DNA of 44,025 bases from Methanobacteriaceae archaeon (GTDB lineage: Archaea > Methanobacteriota > Methanobacteria > Methanobacteriales > Methanobacteriaceae), in assembly GCA_030539615.1 (NCBI GenBank), contig JAUNXU010000007.1, forward strand, positions 1 through 44,025, in the 5' to 3' direction. The translations under genes were made by a program, and so were the position numbers. This document shows, piece by piece, positions 1,420-44,025 of this stretch. The notes below the pieces were generated by a model. That model worked only from the letters and a program-made list of their open reading frames with translations. It did not search any database and was not told the origin of the DNA. Numbering within the stretch: the first letter of the stretch is position 1; each line of letters starts with the position of its first letter.

Positions 1420-1881
1420 TTAAAAAAAGAATTCAAATTCAGCAGCGTTTTTAACAGTTAGAATAACATTAATTGTAATATTATTCCCAGTTATATCAAT
1501 GCCCATACTTAGTTTAACAATATTATTTAATTCACTTTTAGAAATATTAAAATGATTAGGAGCATTAAGTATTTCTAATGCACGTGGAATTTTCTTAACA
1601 TCAACTTCTAATAAAATATCATCTTCTAATTCAATAACTTTATCATATACATAATCTACAGGCTGAGCAATAAATAAAGCATCAGCATACTCATCATAAG
1701 TACATACATCATGTTTAACCATATATACCATTATCTCCCTTAATTTTAATATATTGTTACTAATACTATTATTCTTATCAACAGCTACAATTACAGTTCT
1801 ATTCAAAGGTTTATTAAATCTATTAATTTCTTCACATTTTAAATCTTTTTTGTATGTTATTAATACAATATTAAAAATCAT
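1420..1881 (-). CDS. DUF2283 domain protein, third gene of the type III R-M operon
   Basis: This is a 153-residue product. Residues from about 60 onward (YDEYADALFI, then DDILLEVD, then ALEILNAPNHF) are a clear DUF2283 domain, a small beta-rich family of unknown biochemistry often found beside toxin-antitoxin genes. The first 50 residues match nothing I know. The ATG at 1879-1881 overlaps the end of res by 11 bases, which suggests translational coupling. However, AGGGAG lies just before internal methionines at codons 51 and 54 (ATGs at 1729-1731 and 1720-1722). The real product may therefore be a DUF2283-only protein of about 100 residues. Its role in the operon is unknown; an antitoxin-like or regulatory partner is only a guess. 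Confidence 0.65.
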   Translation of the reverse strand: MIFNIVLITYKKDLKCEEINRFNKPLNRTVIVAVDKNNSISNNILKLREIMVYMVKHDVCTYDEYADALFIAQPVDYVYDKVIELEDDILLEVDVKKIPRALEILNAPNHFNISKSELNNIVKLSMGIDITGNNITINVILTVKNAAEFEFFF

Positions 1882-4768
1882 CTAATGTAAAATATCCTTT
1901 TGCTTTTGATTGAGTTACAATACAATAATCTAATATTTCTTTGATAGATGCTCCTTTATCATGTAATGTATTAAATGTATCATCACTTAATAAAACATAA
2001 TTCCATTTAGCATCCATTCTGTCAATACCTTTCAATTGATTTATTTTTTCTAATTCATCTAATGTTGCTAATCGTTTAGATTGAACATTTTCACTTTTTA
2101 AATCTTTATTAGCTTTAGTTTCAACAACATAAATATCATTATTAATTTTTACTAAAAAATCAGGATAATATCTAGCTAATAATCCATCATCACGAATATA
2201 AGTTATAGCTGCAAATGTATGATAATATTCATTTATTTTTAAAAAAGAATTAACATGACTATCATTATCACAAGATTTCATAAATAACTTTTCAAATAGT
2301 CCTTTATTTGAAGGATATGGTAATTTTTCATAGATGGATTTACTTACATTAATAGAATAATTTTCTCTCATTTTTAATTCTTTAACTTCAGAAAAATAAT
2401 TTTTAGTTATTATAGCATCTGTTATATCAACATTATTTTGCATGTCTTGAATAATATCAGCAAATTGTTTAAGTATATGGCTAACAATATCTTTAGATAT
2501 TAATAATATTTGATAATTACCATTTATCATAGGATCAAAATCACAATTAAATAATTTTGTTCTTATATATTCATCAATTAATTGAGCTATATAAGCATTA
2601 TTTATTTGTAGCATAGGAAATTCCTTAGAAAAACTTCTTCTCCCTTTTTTAATAGATTTAATCATACTTCCAATCTTTTTAACTATTTTAAACAAAAATT
2701 CATTATAACTATCAGCATTAAATAAATTATCAGTTACAATGTATTCTCCAAATTTTGTTCTAACAGTTAATTCTTGTGATACAAATTTTTCATCAGATGA
2801 TTCTTCTTTTAATTTTTCTAATTCTTCTAAAGAAACTTTATAAGATTTAAAAGAATCTAAAGAAAAGTCCATAGGAATAATATTTTCTTCTTGTTCTTTA
2901 ACTATTACAGGCCAATAAAAATCATAATCAATATAATTATCTTTTAAATTAACTGTAATCATATCACCTAAAATTTTAGTAGTACTAATTTCATCTTTAA
3001 TTTCAGTCATAAGTCCTTCTTCAATAAATTCATCATAAAACTCAGTAAATTTAGGATGTTCAATAATACTTAATAAATCTAATTGATTAGAAGGTTCAAT
3101 CTTTTTAATTAAAATATTTTCTCTACTTTCATTTTTAATATCAATATATTCAGGTTCTCTCCACATTAATCTTAAACCACGACCAATAGTTTGTTCAAGA
3201 AGAATAGGTGCTTTAGAAGATCTAAGAGGAACTATTACACAAATATTATTCACATCAAAACCTTCTCTTAACATTAAAACAGAAACAATAATCTTAGGAT
3301 TAGTATGTTGATCCATATTAAATAATTGTTGTTTTAATGAATTCCACTCTTTTTCATTAACTTCTCCTTTTCTATTTGAATGAATTTCCATAATTTCATC
3401 TTGAGATAATCCTTCATCAATAAAAAACTGAGTAACAAAAGGAGCAACTGAAGTATCTTCACACATAACTAACATTTTTGGCTGTTTAGAATTATCATAA
3501 TCTTTAAAACCATTAGATAAAATATTTAATTTAGAAATACCAGCTCTTAACATAATTTTTTGACCTTTAGATAAATCAATAACTTTTTTACCATCTCTTT
3601 CAGCTTTATAATCTAATGGTATGGAAGATACTTCTTTTCTTTTATCAATAGCAATCATTTTTACTAAACCATTATGAATAGCAGTTTTCAAATCAAAATC
3701 AACAATTATATGTGGAAAATAATGTCTTTTTTTGTTTTTACCACTAGATGAATTATAAGGCGTTGCAGAAAAATCAATCTGAATAAAGTTAGAACTTTTA
3801 TTTTCAGCAATCTTATTTAAACTCTTTTGCCATTCAACTTCAAAAACTTCACCACCTTTCTTAATTTCATGGATATGGTGAGCTTCATCATTAAAAACAA
3901 CTAAATCATCTAAACTAGCCAAGTAATCAATTTCTTTACCCCTTAAATAATTATTATCTAAAGATTCTAAACTATTTCCAGCAGTTTTTCCTGGAGAAAT
4001 AGGTAAAACATTTTCTAAAACAATCTCTGGAGAATCTAAAGGAGAATCAACATTTTTAGTATTTTCTTCATTTTTTAAAATATGCCAATTAGTAATAGCA
4101 ATTAAACCATCACCAGTAACTTTTGAAGAAATTTCATCCTTCTTAACAACAGAAGACTGTAAAAAACCTAAAATCTTATTTTCATAAGCTTCAGGAATAA
4201 ACAACTCTTTAAAATTCATAAAATCAGAAGTTTCAAAATCACGAAGTCCATTACTATTTTCCTTTCCTAAAAAAGCATCCAAAATACGATTATAAACAAT
4301 TAATCCAGGAGCAACAATAAGAAAATTTTTTGAAAAATTATCAAATCCCTCTTTAGCATTTAAGTACTGCCAAATAAGTAAAGCATTCATAACCCAAGTT
4401 TTACCAGTTCCAGTAGCCATCTTAACACCAAACATAGGATGTTGGTATTTATCCTTTTTTAAATAATCAATATCCATATTATCTAATAACTCAGGATCAG
4501 TAGAAAGATACAAATCCTTTACATTATTTATTTTCAAAATTTCACTAAGATAAATAATATTTAAAATAGCTTGTTTTTGTCCTTCATGAAAATTAATATT
4601 ACGAATATCACAAAAAGAATCAGAAAACCAAAATCTTAATAAATCCTGAGTAACAGAAGAAACTTTTTCATAAAAAGAACCATTACTCCAAGACTCATTA
4701 ACTTCATTTGTTAAAAACTTAGCCATTTTCAAAGGGTTTCTACCAGTACCTTTACTTTTTTTAACCAT
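1871..4768 (-). CDS. res: Type III restriction enzyme, Res subunit
   Basis: This 965-residue protein is the usual size for Res. Walker A is ATGTGKT at 118-124 and the Walker B/DEAH box is D294-E-A-H297. SF2 motif VI is seen as GRGLRL, following the REGFD segment. The C-terminal part carries a PD-(D/E)xK nuclease core (D870 in YYPDF, then E883-T-K885). With its Mod partner it would bind an asymmetric site, hydrolyse ATP and cut DNA 25-27 bp away; that mechanism is family knowledge. ATG at 4766-4768 has AAGGAA upstream and lies only 6 bases after the mod stop, so the genes are co-transcribed. The frame is intact. Type III Res needs Mod for specificity, so it should be idle while mod is out of frame. 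Confidence 0.93.
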   Translation of the reverse strand: MVKKSKGTGRNPLKMAKFLTNEVNESWSNGSFYEKVSSVTQDLLRFWFSDSFCDIRNINFHEGQKQAILNIIYLSEILKINNVKDLYLSTDPELLDNMDIDYLKKDKYQHPMFGVKMATGTGKTWVMNALLIWQYLNAKEGFDNFSKNFLIVAPGLIVYNRILDAFLGKENSNGLRDFETSDFMNFKELFIPEAYENKILGFLQSSVVKKDEISSKVTGDGLIAITNWHILKNEENTKNVDSPLDSPEIVLENVLPISPGKTAGNSLESLDNNYLRGKEIDYLASLDDLVVFNDEAHHIHEIKKGGEVFEVEWQKSLNKIAENKSSNFIQIDFSATPYNSSSGKNKKRHYFPHIIVDFDLKTAIHNGLVKMIAIDKRKEVSSIPLDYKAERDGKKVIDLSKGQKIMLRAGISKLNILSNGFKDYDNSKQPKMLVMCEDTSVAPFVTQFFIDEGLSQDEIMEIHSNRKGEVNEKEWNSLKQQLFNMDQHTNPKIIVSVLMLREGFDVNNICVIVPLRSSKAPILLEQTIGRGLRLMWREPEYIDIKNESRENILIKKIEPSNQLDLLSIIEHPKFTEFYDEFIEEGLMTEIKDEISTTKILGDMITVNLKDNYIDYDFYWPVIVKEQEENIIPMDFSLDSFKSYKVSLEELEKLKEESSDEKFVSQELTVRTKFGEYIVTDNLFNADSYNEFLFKIVKKIGSMIKSIKKGRRSFSKEFPMLQINNAYIAQLIDEYIRTKLFNCDFDPMINGNYQILLISKDIVSHILKQFADIIQDMQNNVDITDAIITKNYFSEVKELKMRENYSINVSKSIYEKLPYPSNKGLFEKLFMKSCDNDSHVNSFLKINEYYHTFAAITYIRDDGLLARYYPDFLVKINNDIYVVETKANKDLKSENVQSKRLATLDELEKINQLKGIDRMDAKWNYVLLSDDTFNTLHDKGASIKEILDYCIVTQSKAKGYFTLDDF

Positions 4769-4774
4769 ATTTCA

Positions 4775-6475
4775 TCATTCCTTTTTAATTATCTTAGTAA
4801 CCATACTTTCAAAACCAAACACATCAACAGCTTTTATACAAATCTTTCTATCATGATCTAATTTAGAAACATTAAGAACAGCAGTTCTTATAACCTTATA
4901 AGGATCATTATCATTAGCAGTATTTTCCCTATAATCTTGCCAAATACTCCTAAATAAATTACCATCATAATCAGGATCAATACTCCAATATTCAATTAAA
5001 GACAATGGATCATTATTTATAACGTCACGTAAAATCTTTTTATTCTTATCATCTAAAGGAATAACATCAGGAGACAATAAAACATAATTTTCCAACTCAA
5101 CATTTAAAGTTTCAATTTCGTTATTATACTCTTTAATAACAGGTTCTTTTATTTTCAAATACTGTAATGAAGAAAACCTCAATTTACCAGATTCAATTAA
5201 TTTCCTAGCATTAGATTTAGTTTTTAACTGTTCTAATAAATCAGGAGGAATAACAAGAATCTCAATATTAGTTTTATTATACTTTTCAATTAATTCACCA
5301 ATATTATACACAAAATTCCAACCTAAAACAACAACCTTATTCCAACCACCTTTATAAGAATTTCTTAACTTCTGAGCTTTAATAATAGTATTTTCACCAG
5401 TTAACTTAGAAGGAGAATCAACATAAACCAAAGTTTTAGAATCCTTAATATAACCAAGATTATCCCTACTTTCAATATCATTAAAAGGAATAGCACCAAA
5501 AAGATGCATAACAACACTACTCAAATCACGAATAGTCTTAAATTCAGACATTTCATATTGTTCTTTTTGATAATCACCAATAGATTGGAATAAAAAAGAA
5601 CTAGCATCCTGATCAATTAATCTCTTACGAGTAATTAAACAAGCAGGTTTACCTAAATCAGACATAATCCATTTACGACCTAATTTATCAGCAACAGCAC
5701 CAGTAGTACCAGAACCACAAAAGAAATCAGCAACAATAGAATCTTCATTAGAAGAAGCTTTAATAATACGTTCTAAAAGCTTTTCAGGCTTTTGAGTATA
5801 AAAACCAGTTCTTTGTGGATCTTTTTGTTGGATGTGACTAATATCTAACCATACATCAGGACATAAAGTTGGTTCATCATCATAATATTTGTAAATTTTA
5901 CCTGAAGATTTTATTGTTCTATATACTCGTCCATCTTGATCTGTATGTTTTTTTAAATGATTCCATTTTTCTAAAATTTGATTACATGATGGACATTTAT
6001 TTCGAGGAATAGTTGCATAATTTGTATTGAAATATTTTTCATTGTTTTTTTGATAAAAAAGGATGACATCATGTTTTTTTGAAAAATTTGATTTAGGAGT
6101 TCCTCCACTAGAATAATGCCAAATAATTTCATTTACAAAGTTTTCTTTTCCAAATATTTCATCCATTATTATTTTTAAATAGTGACCTACATGCCAATCA
6201 ATGTGGACATATATGCTACCTTGTTCGGATAATAATTCTTTCATTAAAATAAGTCGCGGTACCATCATTTCAAGATAACTTGCAGTACCATTTTTCCAAG
6301 TATCTTTGTAAGCAAATTGTTCAATAACTGTGGGTTTTTGATCAAGTTTTTTATCAGAAAGTTCTATTTTTGTTCTATAATCTGCTTTAGAATCAAAAGG
6401 GGGATCAATATATATTAAATCAATTTTTCCTCTCATTGAAGGGGTATTTTCATTTCCACTTAAAAGAGTTTGCAT
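4775..6475 (-). CDS. mod: Type III DNA adenine methyltransferase Mod, main part (separated from its N-terminus by repeat slippage)
   Basis: 566 residues are open from the ATG at 6473-6475. Methylase motif IV is DPPF at 24-27, within [11 protein letters not shown]. Motif I (D250-FFCGSG) comes after it, the beta-class order expected of type III N6-adenine methyltransferases. The intervening segment contains a CxxC pair (CPSCNQ). The frame stays open upstream of this ATG and encodes [14 protein letters not shown], a conserved piece of Mod N-termini, back to the CT repeat at 6521-6542. The annotated ATG is therefore internal. The true N-terminus is the small frame at 6499-6717, in another reading frame. 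With ten CT units the gene would run 6717 to 4775 and give about 646 residues. The present state should be OFF or a truncated product. Confidence 0.92.
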
Positions 6476-20858: not shown

Positions 20859-22010
20859 ATGAAAATATGGAGAAAATGTCCAATTTGTGGATCAGATGAT
20901 TTAGAGTTATTACATAATCAAAAGTTTGCTAATTTAAGTGAATCAAGTATTGTAGATAATTATAATATAGTATCTTGTAATTATTGTGGATTTGTGTATG
21001 CTAATACAAAATCTTCACAACAAGATTATGATAGTTATTATGAGTCAATGTCTAAATATCAAGATTCCAATGCAAGTGGTAGTGGATCAGGGTATTATGA
21101 TGAGCAACGATTAATTGAAAGTGCTGAAACTATATTAAAATATGTGCCTAAGGATTATTCTATATTAGATGTTGGTTGTGCTACAGGTGGTTTATTATAT
21201 GAGTTGAAAAAGAGAGGATTTAAAAATTTAGAAGGTTTAGATCCATCTCCTGTTTGTGCAAGATTAACTAATGAAAAAGGTATTAAATCTAGTACTGGAA
21301 GTATATTTGAAAATAATTTAAATAAAAAGTATGATTGTATTATTTTAACACATGTATTAGAACATTTAAGAGATTTGAAAAGAGGAATTGATTTATGTAA
21401 AGATTTATTAACTGAAAATGGTATTATTTATATAGAATCACCTAATGCTAAATTATATAAAGAGTCTTATATTGTACCTTATTATTATTTTGATTGTGAA
21501 CATATAAACCATTTAGATATTAATTCTATTAAAAATTTGATGTTAGATTTTGATTGTGTGTATACATGTGAAAAATTACAACAATTTACTAAAGAAATTA
21601 ATTATCCTGTTTTTAAAGCGGTATTTTCAAAAAGTAATTCAAAAAGTTCAATAAAAAAAGATGAGTCAGCAAAAAATAGTGTTTTAAATTTTATTAATGA
21701 TTCAAAAAATGATGTTGCTAATAAACTTATTAATGATATAGATATTAATGAACCATTAATTATATGGGGTGCAGGACAGTATGCTTTACGATTACTTGCT
21801 AATACTGATTTAAATAAATATAATATCATTGCATTTATAGATAATAATACTAATAAACAAGATACAGTTATTGAAAATATTCCTGTAAAAAATAAAGATA
21901 TACTTTATGATTTTGAGGGAACAATATTAATTGCTAGTGCATTATTTAGTGATGAAATTTTAGAAGATATAACTAATATGGGAATTGAAAATTCAGTTAT
22001 AATATTATAA
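20859..22010 (+). CDS. SAM-dependent methyltransferase with zinc-binding head, probable sugar C-methyltransferase type
   Basis: The protein has 383 residues. An N-terminal zinc module has C7/C10 and C40/C43. A class I SAM fold follows (DVGCATG at 104-110, HVLEHL). A C-terminal Rossmann-like part opens with IIWGAGQYALRLL, near residue 300. This three-part plan resembles sugar 3-C-methyltransferases (TylC3/NovU type) that act on 4-keto-deoxy NDP-sugars, but the middle domain is of the common Methyltransf_23 kind. The substrate is therefore uncertain. Its place between rfbF and rfbG argues for a CDP-sugar or the finished glycan as substrate. Confidence 0.75.
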   Translation: MKIWRKCPICGSDDLELLHNQKFANLSESSIVDNYNIVSCNYCGFVYANTKSSQQDYDSYYESMSKYQDSNASGSGSGYYDEQRLIESAETILKYVPKDYSILDVGCATGGLLYELKKRGFKNLEGLDPSPVCARLTNEKGIKSSTGSIFENNLNKKYDCIILTHVLEHLRDLKRGIDLCKDLLTENGIIYIESPNAKLYKESYIVPYYYFDCEHINHLDINSIKNLMLDFDCVYTCEKLQQFTKEINYPVFKAVFSKSNSKSSIKKDESAKNSVLNFINDSKNDVANKLINDIDINEPLIIWGAGQYALRLLANTDLNKYNIIAFIDNNTNKQDTVIENIPVKNKDILYDFEGTILIASALFSDEILEDITNMGIENSVIIL

Positions 22011-33094: not shown

Positions 33095-36000
33095 ATGAGT
33101 GGGCAAGTTATTGAAAAAAATACTGAAATTGAAATTAAAAAATTAAGAAATAATCTTATAGATATGGGGTTAAGAAACAATTTATTAAATTTTAAGATAT
33201 TAAAAAGCAGAACTATTCCTGTGGTAGATGAGGTTGTAGGAGAATTATTTGATATTCTTGTTTTATCTGGAAAAAAAATGAAATTTTTACCTGGAAAAGG
33301 GCGGAATAATCATCAGAAAAATAAGAATACATTATGGAAAATGCCATTATCATCTAATGTTCCTGATAAACACAAAGATTTATTTTTACAAACTAATTTA
33401 GAAGAAGAATCTCTTCAAAATAAATTATTTTCACTTCATCAATATTATAAAACTAATTTAGAAGAACAAGGATATAATAGTCTTTATTTATCTTTAGGCT
33501 GTTTAGAATGGAATGAAAGTAGTGATGAATTAAATCTTCGTAAAGCACCATTATTTTTAATACCTGTAAAAATATTTAGAAATTCAGTGAATAATCCTTT
33601 TAAAATTGAATGGGATGAGGATGATTGTTGTTTTAATACAGCATTAGAATTTAAATTAATTGAACAAGGTATTACTCTTCCAAAATTTGATGAAATAAAA
33701 ACTAAAAAAGATCTTAATAATTATTTTAAAGAAGTACAAAAAAGCATTTCTACAAAAAAAAATTGGAACATTACTAATGAAATTTATTTAAGTAATTTTA
33801 GTTTTAAGAAAATTGTAATGTATAAAGATTTGGATATGGATAATTGGCCAGAAGATATTTTAGATGGTGGAATAAATAGCTTAATTAATCCTATTAATGA
33901 ACAAAATACTGATTCTTTTGAAGAAAAAGATTGTGATAGATTAATTAAAGATGAAAATGTTTTTCATGTTTTAGATGCTGATTCTTCTCAAGTTGCAGTT
34001 ATTGAAGATGTAAAAAAAGGGAATAATTTAGTAGTTGAAGGTCCTCCAGGTACAGGTAAATCTCAAACTATTGTTAATTTAATAGCAGAATTATTGGCTT
34101 TGAATAAAACAGTTTTATTTGTTAGTGAAAAAAAAGCTGCATTAGATGTAGTTAAAAAAAGATTAGATTCTTTAAAATTGGGAAAAGGTTGTTTGGAACT
34201 TCATAGTAATAAAACTAATAAAAAACAATTTATAAATGAATTATCTCAAAGATTAACAGAACATAAAATAAATAATTCTAAAGAAGGTGAATATCATCAA
34301 TTATTTTCTTTAAAAAAGAATCTTAATGAGTATATGGATGTCATAGAAACTAATTATGGGAATACTAATTTTACACCATATGATTTGATGGGTTTATATG
34401 AATTTTATTATCAAGATATTGAAAAGTTAAACCAAGAATTTTGTAAATTTAATATTCCTGATACTAAGAATTTTTATAAGGAAAGATTAAGTGAATTAAA
34501 ACTTTTTCTTGAAAAGGTATCAGAAATTTATAAATTAATTTGTCCTATTAAAGAGAATGTTTGGAGATTTACTAATCCTAAATATTTAACTCCTGATGAT
34601 AAAGAAAACATAAATAAAGAATTAAATTTATTAAATAATACAATTTCATCAATATTGAATGTTATTGATGATATACAAAATAAGACAGCTGCTAAAAAAT
34701 TAGAAAATTTAAATGATATAGAAGAATATGTTAATAATTGTAAATTACTTGAAATTAAACCTCAATTATTAGGTGATTTAAATTTTGAAAATTTAATTAC
34801 ATCAATTGAAAATTATCAAATTAAAACTAGTGATATTGATGTAAAAGTTTTAGATATGGATTTACTAAATAAAAAAGAAGAAGTTTCTAATTTAATAGAA
34901 GAAATTTCTTCATTAGATATAGAATATAATATTCTAAATAAATATGATTTAGAAGAGTTAATAACTTCATTTCAAAAGTATAATGATAAATTAAATAACT
35001 CAAAAATTAACAAAGCTTTAGAAATTAATGATTTAATTTCAAAATTTGATGTTTTCATGAAAAATAAAAATTCTATATTTACTTTTTTTAAAAGAAATTT
35101 TAAGAAAATTAGAACAGAATTTAAGGGATGTTATGAAGAGGGGGAAGTTCCTAAAAATAATGATATAATAGCTGATGATTTTGCAGAAATAATAAAATGG
35201 AAAGATGAATTTAATAGTTTAAGAGAAACTTTATTACTTTATTGTTCTGATAAAACTATTTCTAATAAAAAAATAATTTATGATTCTGAAAAGTTAATTA
35301 ATTTAGATAAGAAATTAATTCAATTTAAAAATGAATTTTCGGATTATAATATTGAATTAAAAAATAAACCATTAAATGAGTTAGTTAATGAAATAGATGA
35401 TTTAATTAAAATTAAATCTGAAAAAGAAGAAATTAATTCAAATTCTAATGCTTTAAATTATTTTAATGAGTTATGGGAAGGAACTAATTCAGATATTGAT
35501 AAGTTGAATAAAAGATATGATCTCATATTACAATTTAATGAGTTAGTAGATTCTAATTTTTTCAATAATAAAACTATAAAATTGATAAATAATGGCATAG
35601 ATTTAAATGAACTTTCTTCATTATTTAATACATTATTAACTTTAAAAAAAGATATTTTAACATCTTATAATAAATTGGACAATTTATTGAATTTCAATAG
35701 TGAATTAAATAGTTTGGATATAGTTAATTTAAATTTTAATAAATTTAAAGAGCATATTGAAAAGTTCTTGGAAAATGAAACATTATCCTCTTGGAATAAT
35801 TTTAATAATCTAAAAAAAGAATCAAATAAATATACTAAAGGTATTATTGATATTATAAGTGAAGATAAAGTTAAATCTGAAGCTATTGAATCAATTTTTT
35901 ATTTAAATTTTGCAAATAATGCACTTAATGAAATTTTTAAAGAAAATGAAATTCTTCAAGATTTTAATGGGACAATTCAAGATAATTATGTTAAAGATTT

Positions 36001-38185
36001 TAGAAAATTAGATGAAGATCAAATAGAATTAAATAGGATAAGAGTTGGGGAAATTATTGATAAAAATTGTCCAAATATGTCTGGAACAACAAGTAGAACT
36101 TCAAATTTAGGAATTTTACAAAGAGAATTTAATAAAAAAACAAAACATATACCAATTAGAAAATTATTATGTGAATGTTCTGATACAATAAAGAAAATTA
36201 AGCCATGTTTCATGATGAGTCCTCTTTCAATTGCCCAATATTTGGATCCTAAAATTTATGCTTCCTATTTTGATTATATTATTTTTGATGAAGCAAGTCA
36301 AGTTAAAGTAGAAGATGCTATTGGTGCAATGTTAAGAGGAAAACATTATGTTGTTATGGGAGATACTAAACAGTTGCCTCCTACTTCTTTTTTTGATGGA
36401 GGTGATAATAATTCTGATGAAGATGATGATTTGAGTAATGTTGAAAGTATTCTTCATTATTGTAAAACAGCTTTCCATTCAAAAATGTTAAAATGGCATT
36501 ATAGAAGTAAACATGAATCTTTAATTGCTGTTTCTAATATGGAATTTTATAATAACCAATTATATGTTTATCCTTCTCCTATGAATAAATCTGAAGTTTT
36601 AGGTCTTAAACTATGTTATATTCCTGATACAATTTATGATAAAGGAAAAAGTAGGAGAAATATTAAAGAAGCAGAAATTGTTGTTGATTATGCTATTAAT
36701 CATTTTAAAAAATATGGTAAATCTAAAAGTTTAGGAATTGGTACTTTTAGTTCTGCACAACAAAGTGCTATATTAGAAACTTTAGAAGTAAAACTTAAAG
36801 AAAATCAAGATTTAGAATTATTTTTTAATGAAGAAGGAGAAAATGGATTTTTTGTTAAAAATTTAGAGAATATTCAAGGTGATGAACGAGATGTTATTTT
36901 AGTAAGTGTTGGTTATGGTTATGATTTAAATCATAAGTTATCTTTAAATTTAGGACCTTTGAATAAAAAAGGAGGAGAAAAAAGATTAAATGTTCTTTTT
37001 ACTAGAGCTAAAGAAAAATGTGTAATTTTCACCAATTTCAAATCTAGGGATATGTCTTTAGATAATAATTCTTCAGAAGGTCTTAAAACCTTACAAATGT
37101 TTTTAAACTTTGCAGACAAAGGTGAATTTCCTAAAAATTATCATACTGGGGAAGATTTTGATTCAAAATTTGAAGAATCTGTTTATAATTTTTTAACAGA
37201 TAATGGATATAATATTGAAAAACAAGTAGGATGTGCTGGTTTTAAAATAGATTTAGCTATTAAAAGTAAGATTAATGAAGAAGAATATATTTTAGGTATA
37301 GAATGTGATGGTGCACCATATCACTCTTCTAAAGTAGCAAGAGATAGAGATAGATTAAGACAAAATGTTTTAGAAGGTTTAGGTTGGAAATTCCATAGAA
37401 TTTGGTCAACTGACTGGTATCATGATAGAAATAATGCTAAAAAAAGATTACTTAAAGTTATAAATGAAGTAGAAACAGAAAATGAAAAAAAATCAAATGA
37501 AAAAAGTAATATGAATTTTGATATAGAAAATACTTTTGAAAGGACTAATGTTGAAAAACCAGAAGATATTAAAAATAAAGAGATTATAGATAAATTCAAT
37601 GTTCAATTTATAAGTAATGAAGAAATAAAGGTTAATAACTTAAATATTATCCCTTATGAAGAATTTATTCCAAATTTTGATGTAATAACTGATTTTTACA
37701 ATATTTCAGATATTAAACAGGAATATATTTTAAAAAATTTAATAATTGAAGAATCACCTATTCATATTGAGGAAATATATAATAGATTAGGTAAAATATT
37801 TAATGCAAGAATCACCAAAAAATTTAAAAGGACTATTGATGATCGTTTGAATGTTGTAATTACTAAAGAGGATATTGAATGGCACAATGATTTTTATATT
37901 TATAAATCATATTCTTCTATGAAAATTAGGGAAAGAATAAAACCAAATATAAGTTATATTTATTCTAAAGAAATAGATTATGCTATAACTCAATTATTAC
38001 TTATTGAAGGTGCATTTAAACCTGATGATTTAATAAAAGCCACATCTAAACTATTAGGATTTAAAAAATTAACTGCAAATGTTAAAAAAATACTTTCAGA
38101 TAATGTTGATTTATTAATAAGTCAAAATAAAATAAAAACAAATAATCTTGAAAAATTAGAATTAATTGATAATGTTGAATTATAA
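33095..38185 (+). CDS. Giant DUF4011-helicase-nuclease-DUF3320 protein (Hhe-like anti-phage candidate)
   Basis: The protein has 1696 residues. The N-terminal DUF4011-like part (LRNNLIDMGLRNNLLNFK) is followed by an SF1 helicase split by a long coiled region. Walker A is GPPGTGKS at 316-323, DEAS is at 1065-1068, then come GDTKQLPP, QGDERDVI and NVLFTRAK. A Vsr/MTES_1575-type nuclease follows, with D1386 and E1403-C-D1405 (IECDGAPYHSS). The C-terminal 120 residues resemble DUF3320. This order matches the single-gene defence protein described as Hhe. No partner gene is adjacent: 217 bases precede it and 495 follow. TTGGT is a weak ribosome binding site, so the start is less certain than the identity. 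Confidence 0.87.
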   Translation: MSGQVIEKNTEIEIKKLRNNLIDMGLRNNLLNFKILKSRTIPVVDEVVGELFDILVLSGKKMKFLPGKGRNNHQKNKNTLWKMPLSSNVPDKHKDLFLQTNLEEESLQNKLFSLHQYYKTNLEEQGYNSLYLSLGCLEWNESSDELNLRKAPLFLIPVKIFRNSVNNPFKIEWDEDDCCFNTALEFKLIEQGITLPKFDEIKTKKDLNNYFKEVQKSISTKKNWNITNEIYLSNFSFKKIVMYKDLDMDNWPEDILDGGINSLINPINEQNTDSFEEKDCDRLIKDENVFHVLDADSSQVAVIEDVKKGNNLVVEGPPGTGKSQTIVNLIAELLALNKTVLFVSEKKAALDVVKKRLDSLKLGKGCLELHSNKTNKKQFINELSQRLTEHKINNSKEGEYHQLFSLKKNLNEYMDVIETNYGNTNFTPYDLMGLYEFYYQDIEKLNQEFCKFNIPDTKNFYKERLSELKLFLEKVSEIYKLICPIKENVWRFTNPKYLTPDDKENINKELNLLNNTISSILNVIDDIQNKTAAKKLENLNDIEEYVNNCKLLEIKPQLLGDLNFENLITSIENYQIKTSDIDVKVLDMDLLNKKEEVSNLIEEISSLDIEYNILNKYDLEELITSFQKYNDKLNNSKINKALEINDLISKFDVFMKNKNSIFTFFKRNFKKIRTEFKGCYEEGEVPKNNDIIADDFAEIIKWKDEFNSLRETLLLYCSDKTISNKKIIYDSEKLINLDKKLIQFKNEFSDYNIELKNKPLNELVNEIDDLIKIKSEKEEINSNSNALNYFNELWEGTNSDIDKLNKRYDLILQFNELVDSNFFNNKTIKLINNGIDLNELSSLFNTLLTLKKDILTSYNKLDNLLNFNSELNSLDIVNLNFNKFKEHIEKFLENETLSSWNNFNNLKKESNKYTKGIIDIISEDKVKSEAIESIFYLNFANNALNEIFKENEILQDFNGTIQDNYVKDFRKLDEDQIELNRIRVGEIIDKNCPNMSGTTSRTSNLGILQREFNKKTKHIPIRKLLCECSDTIKKIKPCFMMSPLSIAQYLDPKIYASYFDYIIFDEASQVKVEDAIGAMLRGKHYVVMGDTKQLPPTSFFDGGDNNSDEDDDLSNVESILHYCKTAFHSKMLKWHYRSKHESLIAVSNMEFYNNQLYVYPSPMNKSEVLGLKLCYIPDTIYDKGKSRRNIKEAEIVVDYAINHFKKYGKSKSLGIGTFSSAQQSAILETLEVKLKENQDLELFFNEEGENGFFVKNLENIQGDERDVILVSVGYGYDLNHKLSLNLGPLNKKGGEKRLNVLFTRAKEKCVIFTNFKSRDMSLDNNSSEGLKTLQMFLNFADKGEFPKNYHTGEDFDSKFEESVYNFLTDNGYNIEKQVGCAGFKIDLAIKSKINEEEYILGIECDGAPYHSSKVARDRDRLRQNVLEGLGWKFHRIWSTDWYHDRNNAKKRLLKVINEVETENEKKSNEKSNMNFDIENTFERTNVEKPEDIKNKEIIDKFNVQFISNEEIKVNNLNIIPYEEFIPNFDVITDFYNISDIKQEYILKNLIIEESPIHIEEIYNRLGKIFNARITKKFKRTIDDRLNVVITKEDIEWHNDFYIYKSYSSMKIRERIKPNISYIYSKEIDYAITQLLLIEGAFKPDDLIKATSKLLGFKKLTANVKKILSDNVDLLISQNKIKTNNLEKLELIDNVEL

Positions 38186-38680: not shown

Positions 38681-39673
38681 TTAATTAGGCCAGTAAATTT
38701 TAGTCAAAGGAACTAAAGCTTGGGCTTCAATATCAAAATTATCATAATATTGGATAATAAAATAGACTAATCTATCTAAGTCAATTAAAGTTAAAGGAAT
38801 TTTTGATCGTTCTGCTTCATATTTTGCTTCTTTAGTAAAACCACCTGTGCTAACATATAATCCTTTAACAGAATTAGGAAGGCCGCCAATAAAACTTCTA
38901 ATATCTGAAGCACCAATAGTATTGTTTCTATGTTTTACTTCAACTCTAATTTTAGGATCTTCTAAACCTAATCCATCAGGAGAAGCAATAATATCTTTAC
39001 CTCTATCAGAACCTTTTGGAGAAACAATAGTTTTATAACCCATAGCTCTTAAAAGACCAGCAACTAAATTTTGCATTTCAGACCAATCTAATTTACTAAC
39101 TTTATCTTTAATAAATTCAATAGATTTTTCAATAGTTTCTTCTTTTAAAATAGATTCATCTTCTTTATTTTCATTTTCATTAATAACTTCTTCTTTAGAT
39201 GATAGACCATTTTCTAATAAATTTAAAATTTCTTCTTTAACATCTTCATTTAATTCAAATATGGAAAGTAAAGAACCTAAACTATATGTTGTGTTTACTT
39301 TAAGATTATCTCTATTAACTTCACCACACCACTTAACTTTTCTTATATGAGCACTATTTTCAAATTTAGGACAGTACATATACTCAGATTTAATTATTCC
39401 AACTAAATAAATTCTCTTTGTAGAATTATATGAAATAACATAATCATCAATCTTAAATTCATCCTTAAACTTCCACATCACACCATTAATGGAACCTATT
39501 TGAATATTAGTTTTTTCAGGATAAACATCATTTATCATACCTTTTAATTCTTCTTTAGAATTAACTTTAGATAAATCAGGAAGTTTGAAACCCACAGAAA
39601 CAATTTTTTCATCTTTAAACCTATCAATTAAGTAACTATCTTTTCCTGCTCGAACCATATACATTTTTTTCAT
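38681..39673 (-). CDS. Mrr-type restriction endonuclease
   Basis: The protein has about 330 residues from ATG 39671-39673, which has AAGGAG 8 bases upstream. An in-frame ATG at 39715 would add 14 residues but has no site. The N-terminal half (MYMVRAGKDSYLIDRF) resembles a ligand or modified-base reading module found on stand-alone Mrr-like proteins. The C-terminal half is an Mrr_cat fold: GSDRGKD with D227, then E245-V-K247 in VEVKHR, and GLYVSTGGFTKEA. Such enzymes cut methylated or foreign DNA. It is transcribed away from the SNF2 operon through a 147-base divergent spacer. Confidence 0.85.
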   Translation of the reverse strand: MKKMYMVRAGKDSYLIDRFKDEKIVSVGFKLPDLSKVNSKEELKGMINDVYPEKTNIQIGSINGVMWKFKDEFKIDDYVISYNSTKRIYLVGIIKSEYMYCPKFENSAHIRKVKWCGEVNRDNLKVNTTYSLGSLLSIFELNEDVKEEILNLLENGLSSKEEVINENENKEDESILKEETIEKSIEFIKDKVSKLDWSEMQNLVAGLLRAMGYKTIVSPKGSDRGKDIIASPDGLGLEDPKIRVEVKHRNNTIGASDIRSFIGGLPNSVKGLYVSTGGFTKEAKYEAERSKIPLTLIDLDRLVYFIIQYYDNFDIEAQALVPLTKIYWPN

Positions 39674-39765
39674 TAAATTTCTCCTTTTAATAATTAATTT
39701 AATTTTATTATCCAATTTTCTATTAATACTTCAAAATTATTTATTTCTACTTATTTCTAAATAAA

Positions 39766-39820: not shown

Positions 39821-42800
39821 TTGAGCAATATTAAAACATTAAATAATAAAGGTAATGAGACAGTTTTTAATGAATTAAAAAATAGTATTAGAAAGGGTTC
39901 TAAGTTATCTGTTATTTCTGCTTATTTTACAATGTATGCTTATTTTGAACTTCAAAAAGAATTAGATAAAATAGATGATATGCGTTTTATTTTTACAACT
40001 CCTAGTTTTATAAAAAATAAGGATGATATTGATTTTCGTGAGTATTTTATTGATAATTCTAATGATATTTTTGGTAATGAATTTGAGATAAAACTTAGAA
40101 ATGAAATGACTCAATCTTCTATTTCTAAGGAATGTTCTGATTGGTTAACTAAGAAGGTGGAAATAAAGTCTTTTAAAAAATCTAATCTTGCTCAACCACG
40201 TATGATTCATGTTAATAATAAGAATATAGATGATATTGTAATTAATGGGACTGTGGATTTTACAACTGATGGTCTTGGAATAACTTATTCTAATAGAACA
40301 GATTCTAATATTTTTATGTCAGGTAATGAAGTTACAGATCCTCAACTTATTAGTTTTAATGCTTTATGGGAAAATGAAGAATATCTAGAAGATGTTAAAG
40401 ATGAAGTTTTAAAACAAATGAATGTAATGTATAAGGAAAATTCTCCCGAATTTATTTATTTTGTATCATTATATAATATTTTTCATGATTATCTTAATGA
40501 ATTAGATGAAACAAGTATTATAAAAAAAGGAAATAAGCTTAAAGATAAAAAAATATGGAATAAATTATATAAGTTTCAACAAGATGCTGTAATAGGTGCA
40601 ATTAGTAAGATTGAAAATTATAATGGATGTATCCTTGCTGATAGTGTAGGACTTGGTAAAACTTTCACAGCACTTGCCATTATACAATATTATGAACTTA
40701 GAAATGATAGGGTTTTAGTATTGGTTCCAAAAAAATTAAGGGAAAATTGGACTATTTATACTCTTAATGATACACGAAATATTTTTGCTGAAGATAGATT
40801 TAGATATGATGTATTAAATCATACAGATTTATCAAGAAATAATGGAAAATCAGGGGATATAGATTTAGAAAATATAAATTGGGGTAATTATGATCTTGTT
40901 GTAATAGATGAATCACATAATTTTAGAAATAATCCTCCAGTTAAAGATCATGTTACAAGATATGAACGTTTAATGAGAGATGTTATTAAAAGTGGTCATA
41001 AAACAAAGCTTCTTATGTTATCTGCTACTCCTGTTAATAATCGTATGAATGATATTAAAAATCAGATAGCATTTATAACAGAAGGTAATGACTATGCATT
41101 AAATGATATTGGAATTAATAGTATAAAATATACTCTTAGAAAAGCTCAAGGAATTTTTAATGAATGGTCAAAATTAGATGATACTAATAGAACTGGTGAA
41201 AGATTTGTAAATAGTATGGATCTAGATTATTTTAAATTACTTGATACTTTTACAATAGCTCGAAGTAGAAAACATATAGAAAAATATTATGATCTATCAG
41301 AAATAGGTGATTTTCCAGAAAGATTAGATCCAATAAATCAAAGTTCAAATATAGATATTAATAATGAATTTCCATCATTAAAAGAAGTAAATGATGAAAT
41401 AAGCAGATTAAATCTTAGTATATATTCTCCATTCTTGTATATATTACCTCCTAAAAAAGCATATTATGAAGAATTATATGATGATTCTATAAAATCAGGA
41501 AAATCAGTATTTAAACAGAGAGATAGAGAGATAAATCTAGTTCATTTAATGAGAACAAATCTTCTAAAACGAATGGAAAGTTCTGTTTATTCATTTAAAC
41601 TAACAATAAAAAATATACTTAAAAAAATCAATAAAACACTAGATAAAATAGATAAACAAGACAATTATCAAAAAATAAATATAAAACCCATTAATTTAAA
41701 TGATACAAAATATGATCAATACTCATTTGGAAAAACTAAAAAAGTACTATATCAAGATCTAGACTTAATTAAATGGAAACAAGATCTATACTATGATAAA
41801 ACAAAACTTGAAAATCTACTACAAGAAACAGAAAAAATAACACCAGACAGAGATGAAAAACTACAAGACTTAAAAAAACAAATCACCACTAAAATAAACA
41901 ATCCAATCAATGAAAATAATAAAAAAGTAATAATATTTACAGCATTTGCAGATACAGCTAAATACCTATATGAAAACATATCACCATGGGCACAAGAAAC
42001 ATATAACATTCATTCAGCACTAGTAACAGGAAATAATGAAAATAAAACAACACTAAAAAAAGTACATACAAAAGATATAAATGACATACTAACAAATTTT
42101 TCACCAATATCAAAAGAAAGAAATACAATAAATCCAAAAACAACAAAAGAAATAGATATTCTCATAGCAACAGACTGCATATCCGAAGGACAAAACCTCC
42201 AAGACTGTGACTACCTAATAAACTATGATATTCACTGGAATCCCGTAAGAATAATACAAAGATTTGGAAGAATAGACAGAATAGGATCTATAAACAAACA
42301 AATACAACTAGTAAACTTCTGGCCAAACATAGAACTAGACGAATACATCAATCTAAAAGGAAGAGTTGAAAGTAGAATGGTTATGGCAGATGTAAGTGCA
42401 ACAGGAGAAGAAAATGTCATAAATAAAACCAATATAATGAACGATCTAGAATATCGAAAAACACAACTAGAAAAACTACAAAATGAAGTAATAGACCTAG
42501 AAGACATATCAAATGGAATCTCAATAACAGACCTAACATTCAATGACTTTAAAGTAGAACTAATGAACTACATGAAAAAATATAAAAAAGAACTAGAAAA
42601 CACACCATCCGGAATATACTCAATAGTACCAAAAAATGAACTAGAAAAAGGAGTAATCTTCCTACTAAAACAAACAACAGGAAAAAAAGAAAACAAAGAC
42701 CAAAATCCATTATCACCATACTACCTAATCTACATAACCTCCACAGGAGAAATAAAACTAAACCACATACAATCCAAAAAAATAATGGACAACTACAAAA

Positions 42801-43045
42801 AACTATGCTACAATACAAAAGAAATATACAAAAACCTAATAACAGAATTTGAAAAAGAAACACAAAATGGAAAAGAAATGAACCACTACACCAAACTACT
42901 AGCAGACTCAATAGAAAACATCCAAGGTAAAAAAGAAGAAATAGGAGTAAAAAGCCTATTTTCAAAAGGAGGAACAATAACAACAAGAAAAGACATATCA
43001 GGACTAGAAGAATTTGAACTAATAACATTCTTAATTCTAAAATAA
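39821..43045 (+). CDS. SNF2-family helicase with PLD-like N-terminal domain
   Basis: The protein has 1074 residues. The N-terminal 170 residues look like a phospholipase-D-type nuclease domain. Its HKD motif is degenerate (H130 without the usual lysine; NGTVDFTTDGLG as the second half), so activity is doubtful. A SNF2/SF2 motor follows: GLGKT at 277-281, D363-E-S-H366, SATP, and the C-terminal SEGQNLQ with Q813-RFGRIDR820. It leads an operon with DUF4391 and a type III-like methyltransferase, so it is probably the motor of a restriction-type defence system. From about 41570 to the end, Leu is mainly CTA and codons end in A or C, unlike the 5' half. Confidence 0.83.
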   Translation: MSNIKTLNNKGNETVFNELKNSIRKGSKLSVISAYFTMYAYFELQKELDKIDDMRFIFTTPSFIKNKDDIDFREYFIDNSNDIFGNEFEIKLRNEMTQSSISKECSDWLTKKVEIKSFKKSNLAQPRMIHVNNKNIDDIVINGTVDFTTDGLGITYSNRTDSNIFMSGNEVTDPQLISFNALWENEEYLEDVKDEVLKQMNVMYKENSPEFIYFVSLYNIFHDYLNELDETSIIKKGNKLKDKKIWNKLYKFQQDAVIGAISKIENYNGCILADSVGLGKTFTALAIIQYYELRNDRVLVLVPKKLRENWTIYTLNDTRNIFAEDRFRYDVLNHTDLSRNNGKSGDIDLENINWGNYDLVVIDESHNFRNNPPVKDHVTRYERLMRDVIKSGHKTKLLMLSATPVNNRMNDIKNQIAFITEGNDYALNDIGINSIKYTLRKAQGIFNEWSKLDDTNRTGERFVNSMDLDYFKLLDTFTIARSRKHIEKYYDLSEIGDFPERLDPINQSSNIDINNEFPSLKEVNDEISRLNLSIYSPFLYILPPKKAYYEELYDDSIKSGKSVFKQRDREINLVHLMRTNLLKRMESSVYSFKLTIKNILKKINKTLDKIDKQDNYQKINIKPINLNDTKYDQYSFGKTKKVLYQDLDLIKWKQDLYYDKTKLENLLQETEKITPDRDEKLQDLKKQITTKINNPINENNKKVIIFTAFADTAKYLYENISPWAQETYNIHSALVTGNNENKTTLKKVHTKDINDILTNFSPISKERNTINPKTTKEIDILIATDCISEGQNLQDCDYLINYDIHWNPVRIIQRFGRIDRIGSINKQIQLVNFWPNIELDEYINLKGRVESRMVMADVSATGEENVINKTNIMNDLEYRKTQLEKLQNEVIDLEDISNGISITDLTFNDFKVELMNYMKKYKKELENTPSGIYSIVPKNELEKGVIFLLKQTTGKKENKDQNPLSPYYLIYITSTGEIKLNHIQSKKIMDNYKKLCYNTKEIYKNLITEFEKETQNGKEMNHYTKLLADSIENIQGKKEEIGVKSLFSKGGTITTRKDISGLEEFELITFLILK

Positions 43046-43067
43046 AACATAAAGAGTTGATAAAAAA

Positions 43068-43814
43068 ATGGATTTAATTCAAAAATTAAATATTCCAAAA
43101 GAATGCCTGGTAAATAATGTAATACCAAAAAAAGATTTTTTTGAACAAAACATGAAAACAACAGAAAGAAACTTATTTACCAACAATGTAAAACAAATAA
43201 AATGGCTATACTCACTAAAAGAAGAAAATATCAACATAAAAAAATACATAGATGAAGAAAAAGAATATCTAGAAATAGAAATAATACAACTAACACTAAA
43301 AAAAGAACAAAAACAAGAAAAAATAACAGAAATCATACAAAAATTCATACCATATCCTATACTACTAATAATCAGATACAAAAACAGATACAAACTATCA
43401 CTAGCACACAAAAGAAACAACAAAAACGATACAGAACAAATAATCATCACAGAAACAATAAACACAAACAACTGGATAAAAGAAAACTTCACCAAAAAAC
43501 AAGACGAAAAACTAATACAAACACTAAACATCAAAAACCTAAACACAAACAACTTCTACGAAATGTACGAAGATATGATAAATACCATTATCAGATACAA
43601 TGCAACCAATGAAATAAAAAAAGAAATAAACAAACCCATAAAAGAAATAAAAGAAATAACAAACCAAATAACCCAACTAGACAAAAAAATAAACGAACTA
43701 AAAAAAGAACAAAAAAAAGAAACACAATTCAACAAAAAAGTCGAACAAAACATAGAAATACAAAAACTAAAAGACAAAAAAGAAAAATTAGAAAAAGAAT
43801 TAAAAGGTGAATAA
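43068..43814 (+). CDS. DUF4391 domain protein
   Basis: The protein has 248 residues. The N-terminal 150 residues (LNIPKECLVNNVIPKK, IKWLYSL, YPILLIIRYKN) match what I recall of DUF4391, a family found next to SNF2-helicase/methyltransferase operons. Residues from about 185 on are almost pure Lys/Glu/Ile/Leu and should form a coiled coil. It starts 22 bases after the helicase stop (no clear ribosome binding site beyond AAAGAG) and ends 4 bases before the next ATG. It is probably a structural or specificity partner in the complex. The gene has extreme A/C-rich codons throughout. Confidence 0.72.
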   Translation: MDLIQKLNIPKECLVNNVIPKKDFFEQNMKTTERNLFTNNVKQIKWLYSLKEENINIKKYIDEEKEYLEIEIIQLTLKKEQKQEKITEIIQKFIPYPILLIIRYKNRYKLSLAHKRNNKNDTEQIIITETINTNNWIKENFTKKQDEKLIQTLNIKNLNTNNFYEMYEDMINTIIRYNATNEIKKEINKPIKEIKEITNQITQLDKKINELKKEQKKETQFNKKVEQNIEIQKLKDKKEKLEKELKGE

Positions 43815-43818
43815 AAAA

Positions 43819-44025
43819 ATGAATGAAACTAAACTAACAGGAGAAACAAAAAACATCCTAGATGACAATATCACCAAACTAAAAGAACTATTTCCAGAGA
43901 TAGTTACAGAAGATAAGATTGATTTTGAAAAATTAGAATTACTTCTAGGAAAAGAAGTTGATAATTCAAATGAAAGATATAATTTCACATGGCCAGGTAA
44001 AACTCAAAGTATAAAAGAATCACAA
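43819..44025 (+). CDS. Type III-like site-specific DNA methyltransferase (5' end only)
   Basis: 69 codons are visible from ATG 43819, with AGGTGA 8 bases upstream; the frame runs off the window. The N-terminus (KNILDDNITKLKELFPEI, then YNFTWPGKTQ) is the leader of a known group of type III-like Mod proteins. In these, the FTWPGK segment precedes the methylase core. No catalytic motif is visible yet, so the call rests on this leader and on the SNF2/DUF4391 neighbours. Codons revert to T-ending from about 43895. A restriction helicase may follow outside the window. Confidence 0.7.
   Translation, partial: MNETKLTGETKNILDDNITKLKELFPEIVTEDKIDFEKLELLLGKEVDNSNERYNFTWPGKTQSIKESQ

What the first reader, a model, noticed from the sequence alone, without database searches (positions are those of the whole stretch)
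39821..44025. SNF2 helicase with degenerate PLD head plus DUF4391 plus Mod: little-studied restriction-like system
The helicase carries a PLD-like domain lacking the usual catalytic lysine, followed by a coiled-coil DUF4391 protein and a methyltransferase with the FTWPGK leader. The set recalls DISARM or type III systems but matches neither. Its cutting component and the role of DUF4391 are unclear.
Basis: partly seen in the sequence, partly recalled or inferred. Interest (0 to 1): 0.52.

Follow-up and report, generated by a model that had tools for sequence, protein, structure and literature searches.

The report
Type III restriction operon, extra motor
This is the front half of a widespread, apparently unnamed version of a classical DNA-cutting defence (a type III restriction-modification system) that carries two extra genes, a DNA motor with a dead nuclease head and a small protein of unknown function, whose job can now be tested directly.

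Summary
The window ends inside an operon: an SNF2 (RapA-like) helicase whose PLD-like head has lost its catalytic residues, a DUF4391 protein, and the first 69 residues of a type III Mod. The rest of Mod and a full-length Res, with ATPase motifs and an intact PD-ExK nuclease domain, lie at the end of contig C51 of the same genome. Among the 80 nearest helicase relatives, from archaea to Proteobacteria, 62 show DUF4391, Mod and Res; 14 are cut by contig ends, 4 deviate. This is a four-gene type III variant; cutting is assigned to Res. DUF4391 has no helicase-independent home in the sample: helicase matched beside 29 of 30 loci, the exception at a contig edge. The helicase-DUF4391 pair can be lost while Mod-Res stay intact, so it looks accessory. 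In 35 of 82 complete loci the operon also holds inserted genes, many of defence or toxin families. What helicase and DUF4391 do is inferred: a DNA-tracking or remodelling module that extends or gates restriction. I found no paper describing the set. New variant of a known kind.

The parts
39821..43045 (+). HEL: PLD-like head + SWI2/SNF2 (RapA-like) helicase, 1074 aa
   Evidence: AlphaFold2 mean pLDDT 82.7; Foldseek best RapA 1.3e-17; VIA Z 20.3, rmsd 3.6, 417 aligned to ISW1, one of many tied SNF2 rows
39821..40435 (+). PLD-like head of HEL, residues 1-205, catalytically degenerate (H/K/N/E -> Q125/R127/D146/D161)
40538..42535 (+). SNF2 motor core, residues 240-905, motifs I (DSVGLGKT), II (DESH), III (SATP), VI intact
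   Evidence: (near invariant in 101 sequences)
43068..43814 (+). DUF4391 protein, 248 aa; alpha/beta domain 1-160 and C-terminal helical hairpin
   Evidence: AlphaFold2 mean pLDDT 96.6; no Foldseek match at E <= 0.001 in PDB or BFVD
43629..43811 (+). coiled-coil hairpin of DUF4391, residues 188-248
43819..44025 (+). first 69 codons of the type III Mod methyltransferase (cut by the contig end; continues on contig C51, not in the window)

Best explanation
The locus is the 5' half of a four-gene operon HEL-DUF4391-Mod-Res: a type III restriction-modification system that carries an accessory two-gene module. SHOWN by sequence: Mod and Res are of the type III kind and Res has ATPase motifs and a PD-ExK nuclease domain; HEL has an intact SNF2 motor and a PLD head without the catalytic residues; HEL and DUF4391 go together and stand with Mod-Res across phyla; the pair can be lost while Mod-Res persists. 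INFERRED: Mod recognises and methylates the site, Res cuts. HEL, held on duplex DNA (and perhaps dimerised) by its dead PLD head, uses ATP to track along or remodel DNA, and DUF4391 couples HEL to the other subunits through its coiled coil. The module extends or gates restriction, for example by clearing bound proteins or by letting the complex act where the two-inverted-sites rule of type III enzymes fails. It is not the cutter.
For: Rest of Mod and complete Res on C51; RE_endonuc 1.3e-39 and N6_N4_Mtase 2.1e-25; Res homologous to EcoP15I Res. HEL-selected sample: 62 of 80 loci with DUF4391, Mod and Res; 76 of 80 with DUF4391 within 200 nt of HEL. DUF4391-selected sample: HEL matched at 29 of 30 loci, the 30th at a contig edge. 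Distances of the four proteins correlate over 59 common loci, HEL-DUF r=0.90, HEL-RES 0.87, HEL-MOD 0.76, permutation maxima <=0.20. Motor motifs near invariant in 101 sequences, identity to the window 0.62-0.66 in the core against 0.33 in the head. HxK at the right place before the GSxN-like motif: 1 of 99 heads with a complete set (L172; two others have HxK at another spacing). L170 against its near twin L172: HEL-DUF deleted, Mod and Res open, Res 97.3% identical, dN/dS 0.06. Res nuclease motif by simple pattern in 57 of 60 relatives. Type III mechanism: Mod2Res1, two inversely oriented sites, diffusion after ATP hydrolysis (PMC4490356, passages).
Against: No experiment shows that HEL or DUF4391 touches Mod or Res, and no complex was predicted. 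Correlated distances are expected of any co-inherited genes. 12 of 45 Res-selected systems of this Res lineage lack the pair (3 of them with remnants), so Mod-Res does without it. The join of C69 to C51 is inferred: about 100 Mod residues, with the DPPY motif, are not assembled. The L170 deletion may be too young for the Res dN/dS to speak about the time after it.
Confidence: 0.6

Rival explanations
1. HEL-DUF4391 is a separate second defence line beside the type III pair. It uses Mod's methylation as self-mark and blocks unmarked DNA without cutting, as BREX-like exclusion systems with RapA-like helicases do.
For: RapA-like SNF2 helicases recur in methyltransferase-based systems: BrxHII (PMC12839542, passages), ArmA of ARMADA (PMC12458937, passages). 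HEL matches DrmD, BrxHI/HII and DpdE models weakly. Mod-Res works as a gene pair without it.
Against: HEL-DUF4391 without Mod and Res is rare: 1 of 80 HEL loci has HEL alone, and 2 of 80 have HEL, DUF4391 and a broken or partial Mod but no Res; an independent system should travel alone more often.
Confidence: 0.22
2. HEL-DUF4391 restrains Res, protecting the host while methylation is incomplete (control or alleviation factor).
For: Tight linkage and gene order upstream of Mod-Res.
Against: The pair is lost with Mod and Res left open: L170 and L175, and L181 with fragmented HEL and DUF4391; a needed restraint should not be lost first.
Confidence: 0.1
3. HEL is itself the nuclease, a SauUSI-like PLD-helicase restriction enzyme, here with a divergent active site.
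For: Same order of PLD domain then helicase; one relative, G118 (L172), keeps HGK, GSSN and NMEL.
Against: In SauUSI, mutation of any of four catalytic residues abolishes activity in vitro (PMC3874153, passages); the window has none of the four, and 98 of 99 heads lack the set. Res supplies a nuclease.
Confidence: 0.06
4. Chance neighbours in a defence island.
For: The surroundings are an island: ProA/Hhe-like, Mrr-like and Dsr1-like genes.
Against: The same gene order recurs across phyla and in two domains.
Confidence: 0.02

Closest known systems
Type III restriction-modification (EcoP15I)
   Same: Mod and Res of the same families, adjacent, Res with ATPase and PD-ExK nuclease
   Different: Two additional genes, HEL and DUF4391, upstream; many loci carry further inserted genes
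PADLOC C3a139 'HKD+Snf2'
   Same: HEL matches over nearly its full length, 405 bits. I recall, unverified, that C3a names come from a list of genes near type III CRISPR loci
   Different: The model is a single protein without system or mechanism; the HKD in its label is not intact here
SauUSI (type IV) and other PLD-helicase nucleases such as PbeA
   Same: PLD domain fused ahead of a superfamily-2 helicase (PMC3874153 and PMC10853773, passages)
   Different: Catalytic residues lost; stands with its own Mod and Res; a different helicase branch
DISARM DrmD, Dpd DpdE, BREX BrxHII, ARMADA ArmA
   Same: RapA-like SNF2 helicase in a methyltransferase-based defence operon
   Different: HEL misses the equivalog cut-offs (DrmD 151/610, DpdE 99/500 bits); partners are Mod and Res, not DrmABC, PglX or PglZ
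Druantia type III helicase
   Same: Has an inactive PLD-like domain (PMC12458937, passages)
   Different: There a second PLD domain is predicted active; a YprA-like, not RapA-like, helicase

Membership tests
Type III restriction-modification | Res subunit: ResIII ATPase plus PD-(D/E)XK endonuclease domain | tested here: met
   C51: ResIII 2.3e-12, RE_endonuc 1.3e-39; EcoP15I Res 1.8e-66
Type III restriction-modification | Mod subunit: beta-class N6 methyltransferase, DPPY before FxGxG | tested here: inconclusive
   N6_N4_Mtase and FFSGSATT on C51; DPPY falls into the unassembled gap. Relatives: DPPY 65 of 67, FxGxG 56 of 67 by simple patterns
Type III restriction-modification | mod and res adjacent in one operon | tested here: met
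   Mod ends 14016, Res starts 13988 on C51, same strand
Type III restriction-modification | cleavage needs two inversely oriented sites and ATP | not testable with these tools
   biochemistry
DISARM | DrmD equivalog | tested here: not met
   151 bits against 610; DrmD_b 88 against 950
DISARM | DrmA, DrmB, DrmC beside it (set recalled) | tested here: not met
   None among 5 window proteins at and before the locus, the 10 before them and 4 proteins of C51, except weak helicase-core cross-matches of HEL
Dpd | DpdE equivalog | tested here: not met
   99 bits against 500
SauUSI-like PLD-helicase nuclease | four catalytic PLD residues | tested here: not met
   Q125, R127, D146, D161; complete set in 1 of 99 family heads
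PLD superfamily fold (HEL head) | sequence or profile similarity to PLD domains | tested here: met
   Pfam PLDc_2 over its cut-off only in relative G118; profile comparison without it 44%, E 2.3e-4. Moderate support
SWI2/SNF2 (RapA-like) helicase | SNF2 motor fold and motifs | tested here: met

The most novel reading that the evidence does not exclude
HEL-DUF4391 turns a type III enzyme into a surveillance chassis: the motor senses phage action or failed restriction on DNA, and the operon carries exchangeable cargo effectors in fixed slots (SIR2+HerA, PrrC-like AAA, AbiL-like AAA+RloB, Fic, Abi_2, GmrSD-like) that fire when restriction is defeated. DUF4391 would be a new fold serving as adaptor. 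Neither step is shown.
Probability: 0.15. Interest if true: 0.8.

Novelty: new variant of a known kind. Interest (0 to 1): 0.5.

Why it matters
Type III enzymes are treated as two-subunit machines. A recurring lineage, from methanogenic archaea to E. coli plasmids, adds an SNF2 motor and a protein without a recognised fold. It links type III restriction to the RapA-like helicases of DISARM, BREX and ARMADA, whose roles are unsettled, and it can be dissected in E. coli, where 10 of 5426 complete genomes carry close copies of the E. coli helicase-DUF4391 stretch. L170 and L172 are a natural comparison with and without the pair.

Tried and rejected
DISARM, Dpd and BREX membership: cut-offs missed for DrmD and DpdE; BREX helicase models match only weakly. 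HEL as nuclease: catalytic residues gone. PLD homology by profile comparison: the first run (96.6%) had the G118 helicase segment (L157) inside the PLD set; without it 44%. Two stand-alone PLD proteins match the HEL profile at 18.5 and 14.6 bits, E-values for 31 targets only. My first reading of the lost motif as H130/N132 was out of register; the aligned positions are Q125/R127. Relatives of DUF4391 in viral contigs: none confirmed from 9 candidate stretches. DUF4391 fold: no Foldseek match at E <= 0.001, and its VIA rows cover mainly the coiled coil 188-248, so the alpha/beta part was barely tested and 'new fold' is not claimed. DUF4391 against Mod, Res and HEL profiles: nothing. FTWPGK leader as a marker: my loose pattern fits 24 of 67 relatives, not followed. 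Cargo as a mark of HEL-bearing systems: Mod-Res gap over 500 bases in 3 of 21 'with' and 1 of 11 'without' loci, no difference shown. Source of PADLOC's C3a names: not found in the library listing.

Of 60 rows, 51 are covered by the 48 Res stretches fetched; 9 were not fetched. Of these stretches, 45 had a Res frame of at least 700 aa: 21 with, 12 without, 3 partial, 9 cut by contig ends. The Res tree is a FastTree and warns of long branches. The 82 complete loci include at least two pairs from identical systems (L019/L169, L037/L171).
Full report
What is there. The window is contig C69 (44025 bases) of a 1.8 Mb genome in 139 contigs. The genome's family holds Methanobrevibacter curvatus: the DUF4391 hit on relative G020 lies on a 38879-base contig, the length of that species' contig, so the kinship is inferred. 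At its right end stand HEL (39821-43045, 1074 aa), DUF4391 (43068-43814, 248 aa) and the first 69 codons of a Mod (43819-44025), all on the + strand with gaps of 22 and 4 bases. Pfam and PADLOC confirm SNF2/helicase domains, PF14335 and a type III Mod N-terminus.

The missing half. Searching the genome with a relative's Mod and Res finds the rest of Mod (residues about 179-616 of the query) and a whole Res at the end of contig C51, which breaks inside Mod just as C69 does. C51 reads Mod 15446-14016, Res 13988-11055, then a Dsr1-like SIR2 protein 11001-7414, all on one strand. Res (977 aa) has ResIII and RE_endonuc domains and is homologous to EcoP15I Res. About 100 Mod residues between the contigs are unassembled, so the join is an inference. 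It is supported by the complementary pieces and by the same gene order in relatives.

The operon is real and widespread. Of these, 62 have DUF4391, Mod and Res on the same strand; one (L017, short contig) has DUF4391 and Res; 14 are cut by the contig end before Res could show; two have DUF4391 and Mod without Res (L016, L057); one has HEL alone (L078). DUF4391 lies within 200 nt of HEL in 76 of 80. Taxa run from methanogens through Bacillota, Bacteroidota and Chloroflexota to Proteobacteria (titles). Selecting instead on DUF4391 in 348 genomes of the phylum of a Clostridium (31 with a match), HEL is matched at 29 of 30 loci held, three of them with HEL split and one a remnant; the 30th starts 164 bases before DUF4391. 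In the window's relatives, all 8 loci over the family cut-off have HEL; of three weaker ones, none shows it, one of them at a contig edge. Annotated plasmids show the same four genes in Methanomethylovorans, Enterococcus and E. coli, and the first three in Acetobacter, where Res is interrupted. Four complete loci have the order Mod-Res-HEL-DUF4391; those I could place are Bacteroidota.

The head. AlphaFold2 gives an alternating alpha/beta head followed by an SNF2 core (mean pLDDT 82.7); structural neighbours are RapA and eukaryotic SNF2 remodellers. The motor motifs are near invariant in 101 sequences. The head is PLD-related: a relative in genome G118 passes Pfam's PLDc_2 threshold and has HGK, GSSN and NMEL, which look like a complete catalytic set. 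Without that relative the profile match is moderate. Among 99 heads it is the only one with the complete set. In the window all four catalytic positions differ. SauUSI, a PLD-helicase nuclease, loses activity when any of its four is mutated (PMC3874153, passages). I therefore assign cutting to Res.

DUF4391. Predicted with high confidence (mean pLDDT 96.6): an alpha/beta domain and a C-terminal helical hairpin. No Foldseek match at E <= 0.001 in PDB or viral models. It evolves fast (mean p-distance 0.73 against 0.47 for HEL) with P10, K21, E69, P95, P97 and Y167 at 90% or more. No catalytic pattern is evident to me; an adaptor role is inferred.

HEL-DUF4391 is separable from Mod-Res. Selecting on Res in the same 348 genomes (50 with a match), 45 Res frames of at least 700 aa were examined: 21 with the pair, 12 without, 3 partial, 9 cut by contig ends. 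Remnants of HEL or DUF4391 are found in three of the 12 (L170, L175, L210) and in the partial L180; in partial L181 both genes are fragmented, and L166 is a contig edge. L170 and L172 are near twins by Res. L170 has lost about 3.7 kb, from near the start of HEL to near the end of DUF4391, while Mod and Res are open and Res is 97.3% identical with dN/dS 0.06. On the Res tree the label 'with' needs 15 changes, against a shuffled mean of 21.8, with 0 of 500 shuffles as low: clustered, but gained or lost often. Reverse losses exist too (L016, L057, L078). So the pair is an accessory, not a needed guard.

Cargo. In 35 of 82 complete loci, a stretch over 500 bases lies between core genes: Mod-Res 24, DUF4391-Mod 15, HEL-DUF4391 3, Res-HEL 2. 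The inserted genes that Pfam or PADLOC recognises include RhuM, YhcG, GmrSD_N, Schlafen AlbA_2, SIR2 with HerA, AAA_13/PrrC-like, AAA_21 with RloB (AbiL-like), OLD-like TOPRIM, Fic, Abi_2, Bro-N, McrBC and trypsin-like; nine of the 30 proteins matched nothing. The window's own operon has none between its assembled genes but has the Dsr1-like gene 53 bases after Res. Whether type III operons without HEL-DUF4391 carry fewer was not shown.

How it probably works. Mod2Res1 enzymes need two inversely oriented sites and diffuse along DNA after ATP hydrolysis (PMC4490356, passages). A duplex-tracking motor tied to them could clear bound proteins, extend reach or permit action at awkward sites. RapA-like helicases recur in BREX and ARMADA beside a methyltransferase (PMC12839542 and PMC12458937, passages). 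This is inference; the chief rival is a non-cutting second line that shares Mod's mark.

Literature. 'DUF4391' occurs in 1 paper of the held library, seen only in the listing; PF14335, C3a139 and PLD/HKD-SNF2 in none. Searches for type III restriction with SNF2, PLD, HKD, DISARM or RhuM gave no paper that I could see to describe the set; I read passages of PMC2292703, PMC10853773, PMC10952713, PMC11090510, PMC12458937 and PMC12839542. Subscription papers and supplements were not searched, so 'unnamed' is limited to this library.

Noticed in passing
82 complete loci among L016-L095 and L166-L216 (e.g. L176:2747-6944, L084:5041-7032, L095:5793-9980): Inserted genes, many of defence or toxin families, between the core genes in 35 of 82 loci, mostly in the Mod-Res and DUF4391-Mod gaps.
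   Followed up: partly
L172:10587-13847 (genome G118): The only helicase of 99 whose PLD head keeps HGK, GSSN and NMEL; an intact-looking head within a family of dead ones.
   Followed up: partly
L170:6604-7740 against L172: Clean deletion of HEL-DUF4391 that leaves Mod-Res intact, a natural experiment.
   Followed up: yes
window 1871-6475 (-): A second type III system: Mod 4775-6475 and Res-like 1871-4768, with no DUF4391 match in the window beside it.
   Followed up: partly
L101:7414-11001 (-), contig C51: Dsr1-like SIR2 protein (PADLOC 407 bits) 53 bases downstream of Res on the same strand.
   Followed up: partly
window 33095-38185 (+): 1696-aa DUF4011/helicase/MTES_1575 nuclease protein, near ProA (1243 of 1500 bits) and Hhe (946 of 2000), below both equivalog cut-offs.
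   Followed up: no
window 38681-39715 (-): Mrr-type nuclease (PADLOC PDC-S02) between the DUF4011 gene and HEL, opposite strand.
   Followed up: no
L009:3-1599 (genome G039): Res followed directly by the start of a DUF4391-like frame at a contig edge, a gene order not seen elsewhere.
   Followed up: no
window 20859-22010 (+): 383-aa protein with a weak MADS mad2 match, 56 bits.
   Followed up: no
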